Source: Litoreibacter arenae DSM 19593 (GTDB taxonomy: Bacteria > Pseudomonadota > Alphaproteobacteria > Rhodobacterales > Rhodobacteraceae). Taken from it: DNA of 64,000 nt. Positions 55,099-64,000 of this stretch are shown here, piece by piece. The translations under genes and the position numbers were made by a program. Below the pieces are notes generated by a model, which worked only from the letters and a program-made list of their open reading frames with translations, searched no databases and was not told the DNA's origin. The DNA is taken from assembly GCF_000442275.2 (NCBI RefSeq), contig NZ_KE557314.1, positions 403,085 to 467,084 of the forward strand, in the 5' to 3' direction. Within the stretch, counting starts at the first letter, position 1. Each line of letters opens with the position of its first letter.

Positions 55099-56282
55099 TG
55101 TTCGACGCCCTCAAGCCCCAGCCCGCCGACAAGATCCTGTCCCTCATGGCCGCCTTCCGCGAAGACCCGCGCGAGGACAAGGTCGACCTTGGCGTCGGCG
55201 TCTACAAGAACGCCGAGGGCCGCACCCCCGTCATGCGTGCGGTCAAAGCCGCCGAGCAAAAGCTGTGGCAGACCGAGGACACCAAAAGCTACACCGGCCT
55301 CGCGGGCGACCCGGGCTTCCACGACGCAATGCGCGCGCTGGTCCTGAACGACTGCGTCAGCCGCGATCAGGTCGCCGCCGCCGCCGCCCCCGGCGGCACG
55401 GGCGCAATCCGGCAGGGGCTGGAGCTGATCCGCATGGCCGCTCCCGACGCCCGCATCTGGCTGTCCGCGCCCACATGGCCCAACCACCCGTCCATCATCA
55501 AATATCTCGGCATGCCCATGGCCGAATACCGCTACTTCGACGCGGACACACGCGGGGTGGATTTCGGCGGCATGCTCACCGATCTGGATGCCGCGAAGCC
55601 CGGCGACGTGGTGCTGCTGCATGGCTGCTGCCACAACCCGACAGGCGCGAACCTGACCGCCAGCCAGTGGCAGGAGGTCGCGTATTTCCTCAAGGCCAAG
55701 CAGCTGATCCCCTTCGTCGACATCGCCTATCAGGGCTTCGGCGACGGCCTCGACGCCGACGCGTTCGGCCCGCGCCACTTGGCGAAAACCCAGCCCGAGA
55801 TGCTGATCGCCGCCAGTTGCTCCAAGAACTTCGGCGTCTACCGCGAACGCGCGGGCCTGCTGATGGCGGTCTCCCAAGACCCTGCCAAGACCCCGCTGAA
55901 CCAAGGCACCGTGGCCTTCCTGAACCGCCAAAACTACTCCTTCCCGCCCGATCACGGGGCGCGGCTGGTGACGATGGTGCTGACCGATGACGCCCTACGC
56001 GCCGACTGGCTGGCCGAGCTGGAGGGCATCCGCACCGGCATGCTCACCCTGCGCCAGACCCTTGCGGACGCCTTGCGAAAACGCACCAATTCCGACCGTT
56101 TCGACTTCATCGCCCAACACCGCGGCATGTTCTCCCGCCTTGGTGCCACCGAGGCGCAGGTCGAGCAAATGCGCCAGAGCCACGGCATCTACATGGTCTC
56201 CGACAGCCGCCTGAACATCGCAGGCCTCAATGCGCAGTCGGTGCCGGTTCTGGCAGATGCGATTGTGGCGGCGGGGGTCTAA
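55098..56282 (+). CDS. aromatic/aspartate aminotransferase
   Basis: A 394-residue PLP fold-type I aminotransferase of the AspC/TyrB group. DKILSLMAAFREDPREDKVDLGVGVYKN, KSYTGLAGDPGFHDAMRAL, LHGCCHNPTGANLT, VDIAYQGFGDGLDADA and ASCSKNFGVYRERAG (Schiff-base Lys about 246) are diagnostic. It interconverts Asp/aromatic amino acids and 2-oxoglutarate. Coupling to sseA suggests it could also make 3-mercaptopyruvate from cysteine for that enzyme, which is inference. Its last 66 bp recur at 57021-57086. Confidence 0.92.
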   Translation: MFDALKPQPADKILSLMAAFREDPREDKVDLGVGVYKNAEGRTPVMRAVKAAEQKLWQTEDTKSYTGLAGDPGFHDAMRALVLNDCVSRDQVAAAAAPGGTGAIRQGLELIRMAAPDARIWLSAPTWPNHPSIIKYLGMPMAEYRYFDADTRGVDFGGMLTDLDAAKPGDVVLLHGCCHNPTGANLTASQWQEVAYFLKAKQLIPFVDIAYQGFGDGLDADAFGPRHLAKTQPEMLIAASCSKNFGVYRERAGLLMAVSQDPAKTPLNQGTVAFLNRQNYSFPPDHGARLVTMVLTDDALRADWLAELEGIRTGMLTLRQTLADALRKRTNSDRFDFIAQHRGMFSRLGATEAQVEQMRQSHGIYMVSDSRLNIAGLNAQSVPVLADAIVAAGV

Positions 56283-56320
56283 AACCCGACGTCGTTTCAA
56301 CGACTGACTGAAAGGTCCCG

Positions 56321-56950
56321 TCAGTAAAGCCGGGTCTCTTCGTCGTTGGAATGATCGTCCTGCACTTCATCCAAGGTCTGATCCCGCTCGACCGTCGCAA
56401 GAACCCAATCGGCCAAAGTGGGGGCGGTCTTGCGTTCGGGCCAGAAGTCAGGGTGCCACATACGCGACCGGATGAACGACTTAGAGCAGTGCATGAACGC
56501 TTCCTGCACCTCTACCACCATTGCCAGCAGGGGCTCTTTTCCGTTGACCGCAAGGCGTTTGCTAATCGCGCGGTCCTTCACGATCCGCGCTTTCCCGGCA
56601 ATGCGTAACGTGTCGCCATGACCGGGCACGATGAACAGAATCGCCACGTTGGGGTCTTCAAGAATGTTCTGAAAACCATCGACACGATGATTGCCCAACC
56701 TGTCGGGAATGATCAGGGTCTTGTCATCATAGACCTCGACAAACCCAGCCGGGTCTCCCTTGGGCGACACATCAATCAAACCGTCGGAGGCTTTGGTGGC
56801 CACGACTATGAACGGTGCAGACGCAATGAACTTTCGGGCCACGTCATTCAGTTGATCCGTCACTTTCAGAAAGGTGTTGGTGAACCCCTCGGTCGGCAGC
56901 AACTCCCGAAGACGCGCCACGCTTTCAATTTCTTCGTCAACCGTCAGCAT
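56321..56950 (-). CDS. pyridoxamine-5'-phosphate-oxidase-family FMN protein (MSMEG_1061-like)
   Basis: A 209-residue split-barrel flavoprotein. FIVVATKASDGLIDVSPKGDPAGFVEVYDDKTLIIPDRLGNHRVDGFQNILEDPNVAILFIVPG is the FMN-binding barrel, and MHCSKSFIRSRMWHPDFW is typical of the subgroup. The reaction is unknown. The ATG at 56950 has AGGAG about eight bases upstream. Longer starts at 56971 and 57004 are possible. It lies between two copies of the aminotransferase 3' end, as if inserted there. Confidence 0.8.
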   Translation of the reverse strand: MLTVDEEIESVARLRELLPTEGFTNTFLKVTDQLNDVARKFIASAPFIVVATKASDGLIDVSPKGDPAGFVEVYDDKTLIIPDRLGNHRVDGFQNILEDPNVAILFIVPGHGDTLRIAGKARIVKDRAISKRLAVNGKEPLLAMVVEVQEAFMHCSKSFIRSRMWHPDFWPERKTAPTLADWVLATVERDQTLDEVQDDHSNDEETRLY

Positions 56951-57020
56951 GTCAAAACTTCTCCTGCTCATGTCACCATCCGCGATGCATGTCCACGGCA
57001 CCATAGCAGACCCCGTGAAA

Positions 57021-57086
57021 ATCGCAGGCCTGAACGCGCAGTCTGTGCCGTTTCTGGCAGATGCGATTGTGGCGGCAGGGGTTTAG
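57021..57086 (+). pseudogene. second copy of aminotransferase 3' end
   Basis: This 66-bp segment encodes IAGLNAQSVPFLADAIVAAGV and a stop. It matches the last 22 codons of the aminotransferase at 56217-56282 with seven base differences, mostly silent. There is no upstream coding part. It is a remnant left when DNA between the two copies was inserted or exchanged. Confidence 0.85.
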
Positions 57087-57384: not shown

Positions 57385-58356
57385 TCAAGCCGCACCAGGT
57401 ATTTGGACTTGCCGCCGTCCTTCATTGAAATCATCCATCGCGAAGCTCCACGTAGTGCCGGGCCAACGGACTTCCATCTGTTGAAGGCGAGGCCGGTATA
57501 CGGCAGTGTATAACGTGCCAAAGCCAGCATCGAATGCTGTGGAATAGAGCGGAGGCTTCAGAAAAGCGCCGATGAACTTCTCCTCCGGGTCGCGGTGGAG
57601 CGTCAAGCGTTGCAGCAAGAACCGCTCACGCTCGACCGTGGCGGTGAACCGGGCGTGGCTGACCCATTCTACATTCTCTTGGTGGTTTGTGGCCACAGCG
57701 GCATGGGTGATGACGGCAGGCCGGTCGGGTGCCATCATCGCGGTTAAGTAGTGGCGCTTGGCGTCCAAGACAGTAACGTTGTAGCTCATGTGGGTTGGAA
57801 CGCGAGCCAGCACAGCGCCGGCCTCTTCCGCTGTCGCACAGGTTTGTAACACGTATCGCAAAATTAGTGGCACCCCGAAGCCATCGCCAACAACGCGCCG
57901 CCCACCAAAAGTCAAGGAAATCGCAAGGCCCGCATCGTTCATGCCGTCGACCAATCCCCACAGCCCGTCCGAGGTGCCTAGTACCCGTCGACCCTGCCAA
58001 CCTGTATGCAGGATCAAGCTGTCAAACGCGTTAGGATTGTAGTCGTAGTTGCGCACCATGACCGGTTCTTTGCCCGGCCAAATCGCTTGGCTACAACCCG
58101 CAAGATACGGGGGCGGGCAATAGAAGCTTAGAAACCGCGCGGCCTGATCACCACCACCTGCCAAATCGCAAAGCTCGTCATACAGCGGCACGATCTCGGG
58201 CATGTGCTCTTTGAGGGCTCGCCTGCTTTCCAGATAACTGGCGCGCGCAGTATCCCCCTCTTTGAGCCACCAGCGTTTGTAGTCAGGCCAATATTCGGCG
58301 AAAAGCCCGGCCCATTTAGGACCGGGCGCTTCTTCGCTGAGGGCGCGCCAATGCAT
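57385..58356 (-). CDS. C45-family autoproteolytic acyltransferase/hydrolase
   Basis: A 323-residue Ntn-hydrolase of the isopenicillin-N acyltransferase-like family. The autocleavage site and nucleophile are seen in YLAGCSQAIW (Gly87-Cys88), followed by VMVRNYDYNP and GLVDGMNDAGLAISLTFGGR, as expected for the mature beta chain. TNHQENVEW fits the substrate pocket. Family members transfer or hydrolyse amide-linked acyl groups, for example penicillin acyl exchange or beta-alanyl-amine hydrolysis by insect Tan. AAGGAG precedes the ATG. It lies nine bases after the ATP-grasp stop and is the last gene of a four-gene run. Confidence 0.82.
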   Translation of the reverse strand: MHWRALSEEAPGPKWAGLFAEYWPDYKRWWLKEGDTARASYLESRRALKEHMPEIVPLYDELCDLAGGGDQAARFLSFYCPPPYLAGCSQAIWPGKEPVMVRNYDYNPNAFDSLILHTGWQGRRVLGTSDGLWGLVDGMNDAGLAISLTFGGRRVVGDGFGVPLILRYVLQTCATAEEAGAVLARVPTHMSYNVTVLDAKRHYLTAMMAPDRPAVITHAAVATNHQENVEWVSHARFTATVERERFLLQRLTLHRDPEEKFIGAFLKPPLYSTAFDAGFGTLYTAVYRPRLQQMEVRWPGTTWSFAMDDFNEGRRQVQIPGAA

Positions 58357-58365
58357 GCCGTCTCC

Positions 58366-59823
58366 TTAAAGAATCTTGAACGCCGGATCAGCCAGCGCAG
58401 GGCCGGCATTTGCCACGGGCAGCGGCTTGCCGTCCACGGTTTTCTTGATTCCGTGGATCCATTTTTTGGCTCGTTCGTTCAGCTGGAAACTCTTGGTCAT
58501 GGAACGCCCCCGCGTCACCAGAATGCCAATGTCTGCCCCCTCGTATCGGTAGTCGCCCGGTTGCAAAATTCTCAGGAAGAACGCTTCGTTCTCGGACTCG
58601 ACGGCGCGGCGGTGATAGTCGAAGCGGTCGTACACGACACTACCGTCTTCGAGCATCTTATAGATGCCAGTCTCCGGCGCCTCTGTGCAGATGTCTACGC
58701 CGTCATCGGTGTGTTTGATCACCATCTGAGACCAGCTATCAATCATGTTGGGGTCGGCCCAACGATCGTTTAACTCGTCCACGTCCAGATCAAATTTCTT
58801 CTTCGAGAACTCAAGCAAATGGAACAGGAATAACGGCGCGTCCGCATGGGCGAAGGCTGCGTGGTTCGTCATGGACGACGCACCAGTGATACGCGGGTTC
58901 AACTCCCCCAGCCACAAATCGCCTGTCTTCTTGTCAATCAGGAAATCCAACTCAAAGTAGCCACGGTAGCCTTCTTTGCGCAGCTGTTCACCAAACTTGA
59001 AAGTCAGGTCGCGGGCCTTTTCGCGCACCTTCGGCGGGAAGGCGGTGGACAGGATTTCGTTGCCGCACCAGCCGCCGCGATAGGGCGTCAGTTCTTTGAA
59101 ACCGACAAGTTCGGTCATCAGCGGGCCAACGATCGTGCCTTCTTTGGTGGCACACGCCTCGATGGCGGAACCGCGGCAGTCGATGCGCTTCATGATCTTG
59201 ATTTCACCCTCGCCTACGATCTCATGCTCGTGACGGCGGAAGTCCGCCTCGGATTTAATGAAGAACGTCGTGTGACCACTATCGCCAAACGCTGATTGCA
59301 GCACCAGATCATGCCCGATGCCCGCCTTCTCGCAGGTGGCGCGTAAGTCGTCGTAGTCCTTCACCTCCGCCAGCACGTTCGGCACAGACGGCACGCCCGC
59401 CTTGTTGCCAATGCGCACGGTCTCAATCTTGTTGTCCATGCTCGTGCGCAGCTTGGCTTTTGGAAACCAAACGTCCGCGCCCAGCTCTTTGGACAGCCGT
59501 TCGGTCTCTTCGTCGAACATCAGAAACACGAATTTGGGCTTGCCGCCGCGCCGCTTTATAAAGTCGATGACCTCTTTGTGTTGCAGCAGATAGTTGTTGA
59601 TGTCCTCGATGGACTGGAATTCTGCATGGGGCTGCTCGGACGGGCAGAACACATTGGGGTGCTTGCCGCCATAACAGTCAATGTAGCAGATATACTTGAA
59701 GTTTTTAACCCATTCGTCGAGACCCAGAAGGTTGAAATTCGTGGCAGAAATAAAGTAGATGGGATCCTCGTTACGGTGGAAGAACCGGCGGATCTCTGAG
59801 ATGTTTTTGAGCACTGTTGGCAT
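58366..59823 (-). CDS. ATP-grasp ligase-like protein
   Basis: A 485-residue protein. The N-terminal pre-ATP-grasp region covers about 1-125 (PIYFISATNFNLLGLDEWVKNF). The ATP-grasp core covers about 130-345, with KIETVRIGNKAGVPSVPN, GHDLVLQSAFGDSGHTTFFI and the Mg-binding LWLGELNPRITGASSMTNHA (E-x-N-x-R). A C-terminal domain of about 130 residues follows. Such enzymes join a carboxylate, as acyl phosphate, to an amine or thiol. The substrate is unknown. AAGGGA precedes the ATG. It is 44 bp downstream of the decarboxylase gene. Confidence 0.82.
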   Translation of the reverse strand: MPTVLKNISEIRRFFHRNEDPIYFISATNFNLLGLDEWVKNFKYICYIDCYGGKHPNVFCPSEQPHAEFQSIEDINNYLLQHKEVIDFIKRRGGKPKFVFLMFDEETERLSKELGADVWFPKAKLRTSMDNKIETVRIGNKAGVPSVPNVLAEVKDYDDLRATCEKAGIGHDLVLQSAFGDSGHTTFFIKSEADFRRHEHEIVGEGEIKIMKRIDCRGSAIEACATKEGTIVGPLMTELVGFKELTPYRGGWCGNEILSTAFPPKVREKARDLTFKFGEQLRKEGYRGYFELDFLIDKKTGDLWLGELNPRITGASSMTNHAAFAHADAPLFLFHLLEFSKKKFDLDVDELNDRWADPNMIDSWSQMVIKHTDDGVDICTEAPETGIYKMLEDGSVVYDRFDYHRRAVESENEAFFLRILQPGDYRYEGADIGILVTRGRSMTKSFQLNERAKKWIHGIKKTVDGKPLPVANAGPALADPAFKIL

Positions 59824-59867
59824 AGTCGTCCCTTTCTTGTTCGTGTTTATTCGGCGGTGGCTTGAAA

Positions 59868-62588
59868 TTATTTGGCCTGCGGCAAGGCGGCCAATGCCTC
59901 CGGCGTGAATACCCGCAGCCCCAGATCGGGGCGGTAACCGTGGATTTCGCTGACGTCGAGGGCCAGCATGAACGCTAGAATTTCTTGGCTGACAACCTGA
60001 CCCGGCACCAAGATCGGGAAGCCCGGCGGATAGGGTATGATGAACCCCGCCGACACGACCTCCTGGCCCGCGTTCAGGGCCTCCTGTAGGGAGCCGTCAA
60101 GCTCCAGATAATCGCAGTTGGTTTCCTCGTAGCTGAGATAATAGGCGGTGCGAATGTCCCCCTCCGGCGTGACGTGATCAGGCCGGAACGCGTCGTGGAA
60201 TCTGCTGAAGTCAGGCAGCGGTGGATAGGTTTCCGTCAGGTTTTTAACCCGGCGATCAAACGATATTCGCTCCATCTTGGACGCATCATCGAGCAAATCG
60301 TCCAGCTCGTTTGCGATCTCGACCAAGACCTCGATCAGATATGCCACCGAGGAGCGTGTCGTGCCGATGTTGGTCATAAACAAGACCGTGTTGCGCGAGG
60401 TTTTATTGATCTGGATGCCGTATTTATCCATCAATATCTTTGTTTTAAATGTATCGCCATCCCACCCCGTGCCCCCCACGGCCAAGGTGACGCGGGTTGC
60501 GTCCAGCACAAAATCGTCCTGCTCCCAGCAATCCCACATATCCGTCCAGCCCTGCTCGTTATCAAAATAGCTGGTCACTCCACTTTGGCGGTGTTGTTCG
60601 GGGATCATGTCACCTGCGGTCAGAACCTTGAAATATTTTTGCAACTGTGGATGACTGCTGATCGCCTTGCGCATCGACATGGCGGCCTCGATCTGGCGTT
60701 GCACAAACTCGAAGCCTTCCAACTCCACCTGTCGGCGACCCACGTCCAATGATGCGATGATCTGGTAGTTGGGCGAGGTCGACGTATGGGTCATATACGC
60801 CTCGTGAAATGACTGCTCCACTTCGCCTTTGAAGTCCTGATCGTTGATATGGATCATTGAGCCTTGTCGCAAAGAGGTCAGAGTTTTGTGGGTCGACTGT
60901 GTGGCATAAACCCTGATCCTCGCATCGGGAGGGGCGATCAGCCGAGTATCGAGTAAAGTTTCGTCGGTGGCGTCCCCAAGCTCCAGCTGTTGCTCCTCGT
61001 AGGCTCGCTTGTGTGCGTCAGTCCGCAGCCGAACCCGCAGGTTGTTGGCAGTTCGCATCCCGGTACGCTGGCGGTAGGTGGGGCTAAACCGTGCGAAGGC
61101 AAACCACGCCTCATCCCACAAGAACACGAGGTCGGGCTTGATCGCCAGACATTCCTCCATCACCCGCTCAACATTATAAACTAGGCCGTCGAACGTGCAG
61201 TTGGTGAGTAAGAGCATGCGAACCCGATGCAATTTACCCGCCGCCTTTAAAGCCAGCAACTGGTGCTTGATTTCCTTAAGAGGCACGGCACCGTACATGG
61301 AATATTCATTCAGGGGGTAGCTGTCGAGATAGACGACTTCGGCGCCCGCCAGCACCATGCCGTAGTGATGCGACTTGTGGCAGTCGCGATCCACCAGAAC
61401 GATGTCGCCGGGGCGGACCACGGCCTGCACCACAATCTTGTTGCAGGTCGATGTGCCATTGGTGGCGAAGAAAGTTTGCTTGGACCCGAAGGCTCGACTG
61501 GCCAGTTCTTGAGCTTCCTTGATAGGGCCTTGCGGTTCCAGCAGACTATCGAGACCACCGGACGTGGCTGAGGTTTCGGCGAGGAAGATGTTGGGGCCGT
61601 AGAACGCACCCATATCCTGAATCCAGTGGGATCGGGTGATGGACTTACCGCGGCTGATTGGCATCGCATGGAAGACGCCGGTTGGCTGTTTGGAATACTC
61701 AACCAAGGCTGTAAAGAAAGGAGTCTTGTTGCGAGCAGCAACGCCGCGCAAAATGTTGAGATGCAACTCCATAAAGTCTTCTTGGTTGTAGAAAACCCGC
61801 CTGCAAATTCCCAGATCAAGTCCGGCGATGTCTTCGACAGAACGCTCGGTCACCAGATAGGCATCCAATTCTGGGCGGACGCGGGCGATGAGGCGGCACA
61901 ATTCCGGGCCGTAGTCCTCGGGCAGCATGGCCTCGATTTCGCCGGTCTCGCTGGCATTGGTGATATACTTTCCAAGGATTTCGTTCTCGTTCTTGGATTT
62001 CAGCGCCAGTCCGGGGCGTACAACAATCGCCTGAATGTTGTGGTTGAAAAGCACTGCGATCAAGGCATCCTCAAGACTGGGGACGACGACGGCTTCGTAG
62101 TGAAACGGGTCCTCGGGGCGGCGCATGCGCGCTACATTGCTTTTTAGCCAGCGTTCTTGTTGGTCGTTGACGTTGTCGACGATCAGAACCTCGAAGTAGG
62201 GGCGGGCCATCGCGCGGGCTTCGGGCGACAGCAGTGCCTCGTCGTTGTGTTCTTCGTCATCGGTGCTGTCACGGTCAAGCGGGATGCTGCGGCGACGATA
62301 CGCCCCCGAGGTCAGAGCGCGCTTGACCCGGTTTACGGTGAATGACAGATCGTCAAAATTGCCATGTTCAAACTGGCGGCGCATGTGGTCAAATGCAGAC
62401 ATTCCGGGAAATGCCCAATACGGTTCAATCAGCGCAAGCGAACTGAACAGGTCGGCGACGCGAACCTTAATGGACGCGGCTTTCTTGGCATTTTGCTCAC
62501 GGCACAGAGACGTCACGGCCTCACGCAAAGCGCTCCACCTGTCGGCGCGAAGTTGGGTCGCGGAATAATAGTCGCTGACGGAATCCAT
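59868..62588 (-). CDS. Orn/Lys/Arg-decarboxylase-family PLP enzyme, large
   Basis: A 906-residue protein. The PLP fold-type I decarboxylase core (about 300-700) shows FFATNGTSTCNKIVVQA, VLVDRDCHKSHHYG, FLWDEAWFAFARFSP (cofactor Asp near 492) and YATQSTHKTLTSLRQGSMIH (Schiff-base Lys near 568). The family C-terminal domain ends with FIIPYPPGFPILVPGQ. The first 300 residues are longer than in E. coli lysine or arginine decarboxylase, which total about 715-755 residues. They contain a receiver-like wing region at about 130-265. It should decarboxylate a basic or related amino acid to an amine. The ATG at 62588 has GGAGAAGA upstream, and TTG at 62603 is less likely. Confidence 0.85.
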   Translation of the reverse strand: MDSVSDYYSATQLRADRWSALREAVTSLCREQNAKKAASIKVRVADLFSSLALIEPYWAFPGMSAFDHMRRQFEHGNFDDLSFTVNRVKRALTSGAYRRRSIPLDRDSTDDEEHNDEALLSPEARAMARPYFEVLIVDNVNDQQERWLKSNVARMRRPEDPFHYEAVVVPSLEDALIAVLFNHNIQAIVVRPGLALKSKNENEILGKYITNASETGEIEAMLPEDYGPELCRLIARVRPELDAYLVTERSVEDIAGLDLGICRRVFYNQEDFMELHLNILRGVAARNKTPFFTALVEYSKQPTGVFHAMPISRGKSITRSHWIQDMGAFYGPNIFLAETSATSGGLDSLLEPQGPIKEAQELASRAFGSKQTFFATNGTSTCNKIVVQAVVRPGDIVLVDRDCHKSHHYGMVLAGAEVVYLDSYPLNEYSMYGAVPLKEIKHQLLALKAAGKLHRVRMLLLTNCTFDGLVYNVERVMEECLAIKPDLVFLWDEAWFAFARFSPTYRQRTGMRTANNLRVRLRTDAHKRAYEEQQLELGDATDETLLDTRLIAPPDARIRVYATQSTHKTLTSLRQGSMIHINDQDFKGEVEQSFHEAYMTHTSTSPNYQIIASLDVGRRQVELEGFEFVQRQIEAAMSMRKAISSHPQLQKYFKVLTAGDMIPEQHRQSGVTSYFDNEQGWTDMWDCWEQDDFVLDATRVTLAVGGTGWDGDTFKTKILMDKYGIQINKTSRNTVLFMTNIGTTRSSVAYLIEVLVEIANELDDLLDDASKMERISFDRRVKNLTETYPPLPDFSRFHDAFRPDHVTPEGDIRTAYYLSYEETNCDYLELDGSLQEALNAGQEVVSAGFIIPYPPGFPILVPGQVVSQEILAFMLALDVSEIHGYRPDLGLRVFTPEALAALPQAK

Positions 62589-62654
62589 CGGTTCTTCTCC
62601 CAATTAGGGCTAAAACACGATGACCCCGCAACTTTATGCCGCAGACCCTCTGTT

Positions 62655-63629
62655 TTAGTTACCTGGTGTCTTGCCCATCGCGGGCGAAACCCCGAACCCC
62701 AGTTTCGGTTCGCGGTCAAATACTTCGGCCTCAGCGCTGGCTGGTACATCTACATGCAGCCCTGCGCGGGACCCCTGCTGAGGCACCTGAAGGGGCCCAA
62801 GCGTGTTCAAGAATGCGTCCGTGCCGCTGGTGCGGTCATAGACAGAGAAATCTGTGGGCCGATCGCGGAAGCTTTTGAGGACCTGACCCAGACCTTTCAT
62901 GCCCGTCTCGCGTTGGCGGCGCACCATCGACAGATCGACCTCGATCGGGAACATGTCTTCTTGACCCGCCGACTGATGCAAGACCAGAGATGTTGGATCA
63001 ACGACGAGTGACTTGCCGACACCGCCGGCGCCCAATCCGTTGACGTCAATGACATAACACTGGAACTGAGCTGCGGTCGCCCGCGCGATGGCAAGCTCCG
63101 CGTCGCGGTCAGTTGTGCCGGTCAAGACCGGGTGCAACAGCACCTCCACGCCTTGTGAGGTAAGCTGACGGGTCGTCTCGGGGAACCACATGTCGTAGCA
63201 GATCGACAAGCCAAAGCGACCCACATCTGGCACATCAAAGACGCAAAAATCCGTGCCCGCAGCGACACCCGCCTCGTAGGGAAGGAATGGGAACATCTTG
63301 GCGTAGCGGCGAATGACGTCGCCATCTGGATTGATAACCAGAGACGTATTGTAAACCTTACCGTCCTCTGGATTCGTCAAGAACATTGAGCCGGGGATCA
63401 GCCATATCTTGTGGCGGCGTGCGGCCTCGCAGAACCGATCAATAACGTCGTTTTCGGGCGGGAGCTTGAATTTTTCCAAAGGTCCAAACGGCGCGAGCTC
63501 ACTGAACAACACCATTTGAGTCCACGGGAAGCGCATCATCAGAACGTCGAGGCGCTGCATCATGCCTTCAACATTGGGCTGAAGGGCGTTGACGTACATC
63601 TGCACGCCTGCAATTGCGAAAGGGGTCAT
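62655..63629 (-). CDS. carbon-nitrogen hydrolase (nitrilase superfamily)
   Basis: A 324-residue amidase-type enzyme with the Glu-Lys-Cys triad: Glu44 in FSELAPFG, Lys111 in RYAKMFPFLPYEAG (with supporting Glu119) and Cys144 in LSICYDMWFPE. RATAAQFQCYVIDVNGLG and GKSLVVDPTSLVL follow in family order. It would hydrolyse or form an amide, nitrile or carbamoyl bond. The substrate is unknown. I chose the ATG at 63629 because it begins the family N-terminus. The frame extends 16 codons upstream. It is the first gene of the accessory operon. Confidence 0.87.
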   Translation of the reverse strand: MTPFAIAGVQMYVNALQPNVEGMMQRLDVLMMRFPWTQMVLFSELAPFGPLEKFKLPPENDVIDRFCEAARRHKIWLIPGSMFLTNPEDGKVYNTSLVINPDGDVIRRYAKMFPFLPYEAGVAAGTDFCVFDVPDVGRFGLSICYDMWFPETTRQLTSQGVEVLLHPVLTGTTDRDAELAIARATAAQFQCYVIDVNGLGAGGVGKSLVVDPTSLVLHQSAGQEDMFPIEVDLSMVRRQRETGMKGLGQVLKSFRDRPTDFSVYDRTSGTDAFLNTLGPLQVPQQGSRAGLHVDVPASAEAEVFDREPKLGFGVSPAMGKTPGN

Positions 63630-64000
63630 GTCTTGAATACTCCGTGAAAACAGAGGCGTCCCATCGGGGTCGTCCATCTCATCGTTTCACGCATCTTCTA
63701 GGCCCTTACATCCGGAACGGAAATAGGTGATCGGCGTACGCCCCAATTGGTTTGACCAAGCATCCGCCACGAAAAGCACAGCCAATAAGAACTCAAAAGT
63801 CTGCCGAACTCGGCCTTCTCTTGCAACAAGATTCATAGAATGCAGGGAAAAACGTTTAATATTTTTATCAAAGCGCTCGTATTCTGGTCAAGATGAGCAA
63901 GCTAACCCGTGATAATGCGCGACGCTTGGGCCCTTAGACTCATCGAAGTTAGATATGCTGAGTCCAGTTAGCGTGTTTGGCGACGACGCAATCCGGCCTC
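63630..64000. other. gene-free leader of the accessory operon
   Basis: About 370 bp with lower GC than the cob regions. It should contain the promoter of the nitrilase-decarboxylase-ATP-grasp-C45 genes. A 61-codon frame at 63727-63912 has no ribosome site or protein-like composition. No RNA class was recognised. Confidence 0.4.

What the first reader, a model, noticed from the sequence alone, without database searches (positions are those of the whole stretch)
57385..63629. Four-enzyme accessory operon: amidase, PLP decarboxylase, ATP-grasp ligase, C45 acyltransferase
Four consecutive minus-strand genes with 9-66 bp gaps encode enzymes whose chemistry fits one pathway: decarboxylate an amino acid to an amine, ligate a carboxylate to it with ATP, and then transfer or hydrolyse the amide by two different mechanisms (Cys nitrilase and Cys Ntn-hydrolase). 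I know of no characterised pathway with this gene set. It sits beside recombination scars and has lower GC than the core genome, as expected for an acquired metabolic island. The product is unknown; a conjugated polyamine or dipeptide-amine signal or osmolyte is my inference.
Basis: partly seen in the sequence, partly recalled or inferred. Interest (0 to 1): 0.75.

Follow-up and report, generated by a model that had tools for sequence, protein, structure and literature searches.

The report
Mobile GABA-linked amide enzyme operon
A block of four enzyme genes, kept together in many marine and soil bacteria and here sitting next to a GABA-degrading gene and its likely regulator, probably breaks down a still unknown nitrogen compound; the genes are real and conserved, but the compound has not been identified.

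Summary
The four genes are real, intact and a conserved unit. In 77 of the 80 best-scoring related loci all four occur in the same order and strand; the other three are cut by contig ends. In 398 Pseudomonadota genomes, all 11 with the ligase also have the decarboxylase. The block sits at three different chromosomal places in three Litoreibacter-like genomes, so it is a small mobile island. Related loci add TAXI-TRAP or peptide importers, other aminotransferases, ectoine-degradation genes or an arginine-to-GABA pathway. The 'biotin carboxylase' lacks the carboxylase motif and is more likely a ligase. The decarboxylase has Asn in 108 of 108 sequences where aligned lysine and arginine decarboxylases have Glu, so Lys and Arg are unlikely substrates; its closest solved relative is the orphan Rv2531c. 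Best reading: a catabolic module that conjugates, decarboxylates and de-conjugates an amino acid through amides and delivers GABA or a similar C4 omega-amino acid. The substrate is unknown. No paper found describes it (ten searches, four aimed at the gene set).

The parts
57385..58356 (-). C45 / AAT-family Ntn amidohydrolase or acyltransferase, 323 aa; predicted self-processing at Gly87-Cys88
   Evidence: PF03417 107 bits vs 23; NF040521 187 vs 85; Cys88 in 104/104 homologues; AF2 model pLDDT 71.8 matches acyl-CoA:isopenicillin N acyltransferase 2x1d first, Foldseek E 9.8e-11, TM 0.63, rmsd 6.2
58366..59823 (-). ATP-grasp carboxylate-amine ligase candidate, 485 aa, labelled 'biotin carboxylase' (PRK06524)
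   Evidence: NF005096 757 vs 684 bits; no Pfam hit at E 0.001; ELNPRITGAS where aligned pyruvate carboxylases read EVNPRIQVEH
59868..62603 (-). PLP fold-type I OKR-family decarboxylase with N-terminal extension, 911 aa
   Evidence: PF01276 267 bits vs 27; Rv2531c structures 9n0n/9n0o E 2e-242; Lys573, Asp497 and His409 in 108/108; Asn733 108/108, Arg737 107/108
62655..63677 (-). nitrilase-superfamily amidase, 340 aa; likely start 63629
   Evidence: PF00795 101 bits vs 23; Glu60, Lys127 and Cys160 in 83/83 homologues; Met17 is where conservation starts
57011..57085 (.). partial duplicate of the aminotransferase 3' end (88% to 56207-56281), beside the island edge at about 57110
   Evidence: island edge
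63678..64000 (.). GC-poor gap (0.486) upstream; mgtE lies in the matching gap of two sister genomes and is missing here. The unit continues beyond the window: gabT (L103:8480-9865 minus) and PuuR-like regulator (L103:10100-10654 plus)

Best explanation
The four genes are the core of a mobile catabolic island (PuuR-like regulator, gabT, amidase, decarboxylase, ATP-grasp, C45). Shown: gene content, conserved linkage, intact catalytic residues, the same block at different chromosomal places. Inferred: the ATP-grasp enzyme joins a carboxylate (perhaps the gamma-carboxyl of glutamate or another C4-C5 amino acid) to an amine. The OKR-fold enzyme removes CO2 from an alpha-amino acid or amino-acyl conjugate whose far end is neutral or acidic, not cationic. 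The C45 enzyme and the nitrilase-type amidase then cut amide bonds, releasing GABA or a close C4 omega-amino acid for GabT. It would work by analogy like butirosin BtrJ/BtrK (ligate, then decarboxylate the glutamyl group to a GABA group), with C45 in the role of insect Tan (omega-aminoacyl amide hydrolase) and GabT in the role of PuuE. The order of steps and the amine partner are guesses.
For: Linkage in 77/80 loci and 11/11 ligase genomes with the decarboxylase, 17/398 overall (hypergeometric 1.4e-17, phylogeny ignored). Order changes but company is kept: NIT-ATPG-C45-DEC in L119, L120 and L122. GabT upstream on the same strand in 24/64 long loci, TAXI+TRAP in 39/64, GabT or TAXI in 54/64. 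A second class III aminotransferase in 24/80. PuuR-like regulator (153 bits, below its 211 cut-off). Arginine-to-GABA-type operon around ATPG-C45 in three plasmids. Doe ectoine (DABA) genes around the module. Asn733 in place of Glu. C45 fold. BtrK and Tan precedents in PMC7857480 and PMC5085778 (passages).
Against: No substrate or product was shown. Of 64 long loci, 40 show no GabT hit of 250 bits in the fetched flank and 10 show neither GabT nor TAXI. The need for two amide hydrolases is unexplained. Shinella-type operons lack the decarboxylase locally, and rhizobial ones lack the nitrilase. If GABA-X is simply hydrolysed back to X, the ATP spent needs a reason. BtrK has another fold (alanine racemase), so the Btr parallel is analogy only. 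The ATP-grasp model was too poor to use (pLDDT 39).
Confidence: 0.4

Rival explanations
1. Puu-like amine route: the decarboxylase makes an amine (putrescine, agmatine, 1,3-diaminopropane or, from citrulline, N-carbamoylputrescine cut by the nitrilase), the ATP-grasp enzyme glutamylates it, outside enzymes oxidise it, C45 removes the glutamyl group as PuuD does, and GabT finishes.
For: PuuR-like regulator and GabT next to the module; ligase plus hydrolase pairing; Arginase-family (ureohydrolase) genes in L160 and L162; agmatinase, 2-ketoarginine decarboxylase and aldehyde dehydrogenase in the Shinella-type operon; weak TIGR03381 (AguB) match of the amidase.
Against: No oxidase or aldehyde dehydrogenase belongs to the conserved core; the Glu of the aligned Lys and Arg decarboxylases is lost; the amidase scores 55 bits against a 410 cut-off for AguB.
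Confidence: 0.22
2. Biosynthesis: the operon makes an amide-conjugated small molecule (signal, osmolyte or protective compound), with C45 acting as an acyltransferase.
For: Ligase, decarboxylase and AAT-type acyltransferase resemble small-molecule amide assembly; the place of the module among ectoine genes in L120 would fit an osmolyte; another ligase-decarboxylase pair, FigA/FigC, is biosynthetic (PMC7857480, passages).
Against: The recurrent neighbours that I identified are importers and GabT; exporters were not searched for. Two amide-cleaving enzymes fit degradation better.
Confidence: 0.2
3. Direct decarboxylation of free glutamate, aspartate or their amides by the OKR-fold enzyme, with the ligase and C45 acting separately on the resulting omega-amino acid.
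For: The decarboxylase-only clade sits beside AspT-type antiporters and shares Asn733 and Arg737; a DctA/GltP-like symporter, below the family cut-offs, beside the Cupriavidus module.
Against: That clade is separate and on a long branch, so substrates may differ; this leaves the ATP step unexplained.
Confidence: 0.13
4. A true biotin carboxylase system, as the database name says.
For: Name of NF005096; weak similarity to carboxylase ATP-grasp domains, E 3.9e-6. In L052 a gene with carboxyl-transferase and biotin-attachment domains lies just after C45 on the other strand, and L084 has a biotin-type EAMKM motif in a 1224-residue frame.
Against: After the ELNPR motif the sequence is ITGAS, where the aligned pyruvate carboxylases (3tw6, 2qf7) read RIQVEHTVT. 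Only those two of 80 loci showed a credible biotin-carrier motif; four further motif matches lie in short or unlikely frames.
Confidence: 0.03

Closest known systems
Puu putrescine pathway (PuuA, PuuD, PuuE, PuuR; recalled)
   Same: Ligase plus hydrolase around a masked amine, GABA transaminase, XRE-cupin regulator of the PuuR kind
   Different: ATP-grasp instead of glutamine-synthetase fold, C45 instead of class I amidotransferase-type hydrolase, an added decarboxylase and nitrilase, no oxidase or dehydrogenase in the core
Butirosin side-chain assembly (BtrJ ATP-grasp, BtrK decarboxylase)
   Same: An ATP-grasp ligase (PMC4431377 passage) and a PLP decarboxylase; BtrK turns carrier-bound glutamate into carrier-bound GABA (PMC7857480 passage)
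   Different: BtrK is alanine-racemase fold; no carrier protein in this operon; relationship of the ligase to BtrJ not tested
Ebony/Tan beta-alanyl-amine cycle of insects
   Same: Tan resembles isopenicillin-N acyltransferase and self-cuts at Gly-Cys (PMC5085778 passage), the same kind of fold as this C45; a ligase-hydrolase pair
   Different: Ebony is not an ATP-grasp enzyme (recalled); insect physiology; no sequence comparison with Tan made here
Rv2531c, orphan amino acid decarboxylase
   Same: Full-length match, 810 bits, residues 16-910, shared INKTS motif
   Different: Ile where these have Arg737; its activity is unknown (PMC12910592 passage)
doe ectoine-degradation clusters
   Same: In L120 the module lies between doeA, doeB and an Lrp gene on one side and doeC/doeD-like genes on the other; L073 has doeA/doeB nearby
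   Different: The H. elongata doe cluster as described holds none of the four genes (PMC3187862 passages); whether they lie elsewhere in that genome was not checked

Membership tests
OKR (Orn/Lys/Arg) decarboxylase fold family | OKR_DC major domain with PLP lysine in S-x-H-K | tested here: met
   267 bits vs 27; Lys573 108/108
OKR (Orn/Lys/Arg) decarboxylase fold family | Glu at the LdcI 526 position (VEKT), recalled as the anchor of the substrate's cationic end | tested here: not met
   Asn733 in 108/108; Glu in the one ADC and two LDC chains shown. Ornithine decarboxylase chains were not shown. So it is of the fold, but not shown to be a Lys or Arg decarboxylase
Biotin carboxylase | R(L/I)QVEH-type motif after the metal-binding Glu-Asn (role recalled) | tested here: not met
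   ELNPRITGAS; Glu307, Asn309, Pro310, Arg311, Gly314, Ser316 invariant in 109 rows
Biotin carboxylase | Above the NF005096 cut-off (name only) | tested here: met
   757 vs 684 bits; the name is not a tested function
ATP-grasp carboxylate-amine ligase | ATP-dependent amide formation | not testable with these tools
   Motifs only; AF2 model pLDDT 39
C45 / AAT Ntn hydrolases | Profile, Gly-Cys processing site, AAT fold | tested here: met
   187 vs 85 bits; Cys88 104/104, Gly87 99/104; 2x1d E 9.8e-11
Nitrilase superfamily | Glu-Lys-Cys triad | tested here: met
   E60, K127, C160 in 83/83
N-carbamoylputrescine amidase (AguB) | TIGR03381 cut-off | tested here: not met
   55 vs 410 bits
PuuR | NF007408 cut-off | tested here: not met
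   153 vs 211 bits: PuuR-like only
GABA transaminase | TIGR00700 cut-off | tested here: met
   551 vs 507 bits; but the PRK07495 cut-off of the same name is not met, 595 vs 724

The most novel reading that the evidence does not exclude
A new metabolic logic: an ATP-grasp enzyme masks an acidic amino acid as an amide, an OKR-fold enzyme (the Rv2531c family, activity unknown) decarboxylates the conjugate instead of a free basic amino acid, and a C45 hydrolase releases GABA or a like acid. This would give the Rv2531c-type family its first reaction and a second, unrelated invention of the butirosin trick, used for catabolism.
Probability: 0.2. Interest if true: 0.75.

Novelty: new variant of a known kind. 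Interest (0 to 1): 0.5.

Why it matters
At least 468 genome stretches encode a relative of the ligase (a capped scan), yet the literature searches made here found no description of the gene set. If solved, it would name a nutrient used by Rhodobacterales and rhizobia, correct the misleading 'biotin carboxylase' label, and give a first testable activity for the decarboxylase family that includes Rv2531c.

Tried and rejected
Considered and rejected: (1) Four unrelated genes by chance: refuted by linkage. (2) Biotin carboxylase: see membership test; its odds were raised from 0.02 to 0.03 on checking, because L052 has a biotin-carrier and carboxyl-transferase gene beside the module and L084 a biotin-type motif. 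(3) Ordinary Lys or Arg decarboxylase: lowered by Asn733. (4) A link to S. meliloti SMa0680/SMa0682: recalled, then dropped; passages seen did not bear on this family, and the 39 plasmid records matched by the decarboxylase at E 1e-60 list no strain 1021.

Led nowhere: AF2 of the ATP-grasp enzyme (pLDDT 39), so no fold search was made with it; viral contigs, 52 pattern matches and no relative; promoter and terminator scan no better than shuffles. Ten literature searches ran; four of them aimed at the gene set or its neighbourhood and listed 0, 1, 1 and 12 papers, judged by title and abstract start, with passages read in one. The cryoEM paper on Rv2531c and an amidoligase survey by DOI are not held, so a prediction of this cluster in the latter cannot be excluded.

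Weak points of the counts: the 80 loci are the best-scoring of 468 and closely related, so binomial and hypergeometric values overstate independence. Of the 77 four-gene loci, C45 is cut by the contig end in L053 and L057 and the decarboxylase matches in two pieces in L020 (best piece 74%); 74 have each gene at 85% or more in one piece. GabT lies at the very edge of several fetched stretches, so its count is a lower bound. ORF picks sometimes chose antisense frames; neighbour counts quoted come from tblastn, but the second-aminotransferase count is from the ORF clusters. In the decarboxylase tree five of the 41 names requested had no usable row and dropped out, and the program warned of long branches (L123, L158, L171). 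In one search, sequences under 85% coverage or with internal stops were dropped before counting (83 NIT, 108 DEC, 109 ATPG, 104 C45 kept). Of 32 plasmid records matched by the ligase nine were fetched.
Full report
WHAT IS THERE. Their families are AAT/C45 (57385-58356), an ATP-grasp protein with no Pfam match but over the cut-off of NF005096 'biotin carboxylase' (58366-59823), an OKR-type PLP decarboxylase of 911 aa (59868-62603), and a nitrilase-superfamily amidase (62655-63677; conserved start at 63629). Catalytic residues are conserved: amidase Glu60/Lys127/Cys160 in 83 of 83, decarboxylase Lys573/Asp497/His409 in 108 of 108, C45 Cys88 in 104 of 104, ATP-grasp Glu307/Asn309/Arg311 in 109 of 109 (rows dropped before counting are told in Tried and rejected).

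CONSERVED UNIT. In 77 of 80 all four genes are hit in the order amidase-decarboxylase-ligase-C45 on one strand; the other three loci are cut by contig ends. In 74 each gene is matched over 85% or more in one piece. In one even draw of 398 Pseudomonadota genomes, at E 1e-60, the ligase family occurs in 11 and the decarboxylase in 17, and all 11 are among the 17. The formal probability is 1.4e-17, which ignores shared descent.

BEYOND THE FAMILY. I examined 24 ligase loci outside the window's own family. Ten have all four genes close together (L098, L116, L119, L120, L122, L123, L160, L161, L162, L164). Three have three genes and are cut by contig ends (L159, L163, L166). Five have decarboxylase, ligase and C45 without the amidase (L101, L102 with a decarboxylase lacking its first part, L124, L125, and L158 by annotation only). 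Three have amidase, ligase and C45 without a nearby decarboxylase (L096, L099, L100). One has decarboxylase and ligase with a C45 fragment (L095), one has the ligase alone of the four (L165), one a ligase piece with C45 (L167). The order differs in L119, L120, L122 and L123 while the company is kept, which argues for a shared pathway. For L100, the same plasmid carries a decarboxylase of this family elsewhere. In rhizobia an amidase of another family follows the transporter genes, perhaps in place of the nitrilase.

THE UNIT IS LARGER THAN THE WINDOW. Just beyond the right edge lie gabT (L103:8480-9865, minus strand; 551 bits vs 507 for TIGR00700) and a divergent XRE-cupin regulator of the PuuR kind (L103:10100-10654; 153 bits, below the 211 cut-off). 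Among the 64 of 80 loci of at least 21 kb, a GabT of at least 50% identity lies upstream on the same strand in 24, TAXI plus TRAP genes in 39, GabT or TAXI in 54, neither in 10, and a PuuR-like gene in 18. In the window's genome this GabT is one of eight matches, the other seven being 30-38% identical. A second class III aminotransferase lies near C45 in 24 of 80, 23 of them on the operon's strand. A peptide-type importer gene of the kind seen after C45 in the Roseobacter ponti plasmid was hit in 7 of 80.

MOBILE ISLAND. The block from C45 to the regulator aligns at 94-96% with one same-genus genome and 88-91% with another, apart from one 139-bp piece. The flanks differ: an aromatic aminotransferase and PPOX gene here, surE and tatC in one, rlmB in the other, and none of seven flank proteins of this genome matches in the two fetched 20-kb stretches. 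Both carry mgtE (TIGR00400, over its cut-off) between the amidase and gabT; it is missing here, where only a 139-bp stretch of that gap still aligns. Of 21 same-genus genomes searched, own included, four have the ligase at high score. Operon GC is 0.565 against 0.620 in window 1-56300; in the 64 long loci the operon is lower than its flanks in 53, by only 1.4 points on average. A 75-nt repeat of the aminotransferase 3' end stands beside the island's edge.

THE DECARBOXYLASE IS NOT A USUAL ONE. Its best solved relatives are 9n0n and 9n0o (E 2e-242). A review names 9N0O as the structure of Rv2531c and says the activity was not clarified (PMC12910592, passages). In the one arginine and two lysine decarboxylase chains shown, the motif reads VEKT; here it reads INKT, Asn733 in 108 of 108, and four residues on Arg737 in 107 of 108 where those chains have Leu or Pro. 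That this Glu (526 in LdcI) holds the substrate's distal cation is recalled, not tested; ornithine decarboxylases were not aligned. A 36-row tree puts eight AspT-antiporter-linked relatives in one clade (100/100, with a long-branch warning for L171) apart from the ligase-linked ones; two further decarboxylases without a nearby ligase, L152 and L156, nest among the ligase-linked. All share Asn733, and Arg737 is missing only in L101.

THE LIGASE AND THE C45 ENZYME. After ELNPR the ATP-grasp protein has ITGAS, whereas two pyruvate carboxylase chains aligned past that point read RIQVEHTVT. Against this reading, L052 has a carboxyl-transferase and biotin-attachment gene beside the module and L084 a biotin-type motif, 2 of 80 loci. 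A ligase is likelier than a carboxylase, but not shown; the AlphaFold model was too poor to help. The C45 model (pLDDT 71.8) matches acyl-CoA:isopenicillin N acyltransferase first.

PATHWAY CLUES. Three plasmids hold ligase and C45 inside an operon annotated with agmatinase, 5-guanidino-2-oxopentanoate decarboxylase, aldehyde dehydrogenase, D-amino acid dehydrogenase and alanine racemase (by similarity for L099), a plausible arginine-to-GABA route (my reading). Arginase-family genes lie upstream in L160 and L162. Two genomes of one unnamed family (f66, a halomonad by my guess) tie the module to ectoine genes: in L120 it stands between doeA, doeB and an Lrp regulator on one side and, on the other, SSADH-like and PRK07482 aminotransferase genes that I take for doeC and doeD by place and size. 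L119 has the same two genes, an Lrp gene and an EhuR-like regulator; doeA and doeB were not looked for there. L073 has doeA and doeB nearby, 1 of 80, which alone could be chance. The H. elongata doe cluster as described contains none of the four genes (PMC3187862, passages). The common denominator is C4 omega-amino acids: GABA, guanidinobutyrate, 2,4-diaminobutyrate.

MECHANISM. I favour conjugation by the ligase, decarboxylation, and amide cleavage to a GABA-like acid taken by GabT (0.4). The narrower order, gamma-glutamyl conjugate first, then decarboxylation, I put at 0.2. Precedents seen as passages: BtrK decarboxylates carrier-bound glutamate to carrier-bound GABA, and FigC decarboxylates N-citrylornithine after ligation (PMC7857480); Tan resembles isopenicillin-N acyltransferase, cuts itself at Gly-Cys and hydrolyses beta-alanyl-dopamine (PMC5085778). 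Against it: no substrate was shown, no GabT was hit in the fetched flank in 40 of 64 loci, and two amide hydrolases are one more than the model needs.

VERDICT. A real, conserved, mobile gene set built from known enzyme families, with no description found in the searches made.

Noticed in passing
L174 (NZ_CP071402.1 11468-26421) and L095: In Rhizobium leguminosarum OyaliB one decarboxylase-ligase-C45 set, by annotation, lies next to nifH/nifD, followed by a peptide-type ABC importer and an amidase; a second set on the same plasmid has a C45 fragment next to transposase genes, some 6 kb from fixA/fixB-type genes. This suggests a role in symbiosis.
   Followed up: partly
L153, L154, L155, L157, L168-L171: A sister clade of the decarboxylase sits beside AspT-type aspartate-alanine antiporters, in L153, L155 and L170 also beside aspartate 4-decarboxylase: it looks like a decarboxylase-antiporter system of unknown substrate.
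   Followed up: partly
L167 (G594): Only about the last 187 residues of the ligase were matched beside an intact-looking C45, with no decarboxylase or amidase found in the fetched stretch: probably a decayed copy.
   Followed up: no
L096, L100 around 15-20 kb: Beside the arginine operon, an opposite-strand cluster of NAD synthase, adenylate-forming enzyme, acyl carrier protein and asparagine synthase looks like a separate small-molecule pathway.
   Followed up: no
window 56207-57085: A PPOX flavoprotein gene sits between two copies of the aminotransferase 3' end (75 nt, 88%), as if inserted by recombination.
   Followed up: partly
L017 and L073, downstream of C45: A beta-keto acid cleavage enzyme (NF053568, 493 vs 350 bits for the L073 gene) follows the second aminotransferase; ORFs of the same cluster lie in L017, L022, L031 and L032.
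   Followed up: no
L052:12448-14268: A gene with carboxyl-transferase and biotin-attachment domains lies just after C45 on the opposite strand; no such gene was seen beside the module elsewhere except a biotin-type motif in L084.
   Followed up: partly
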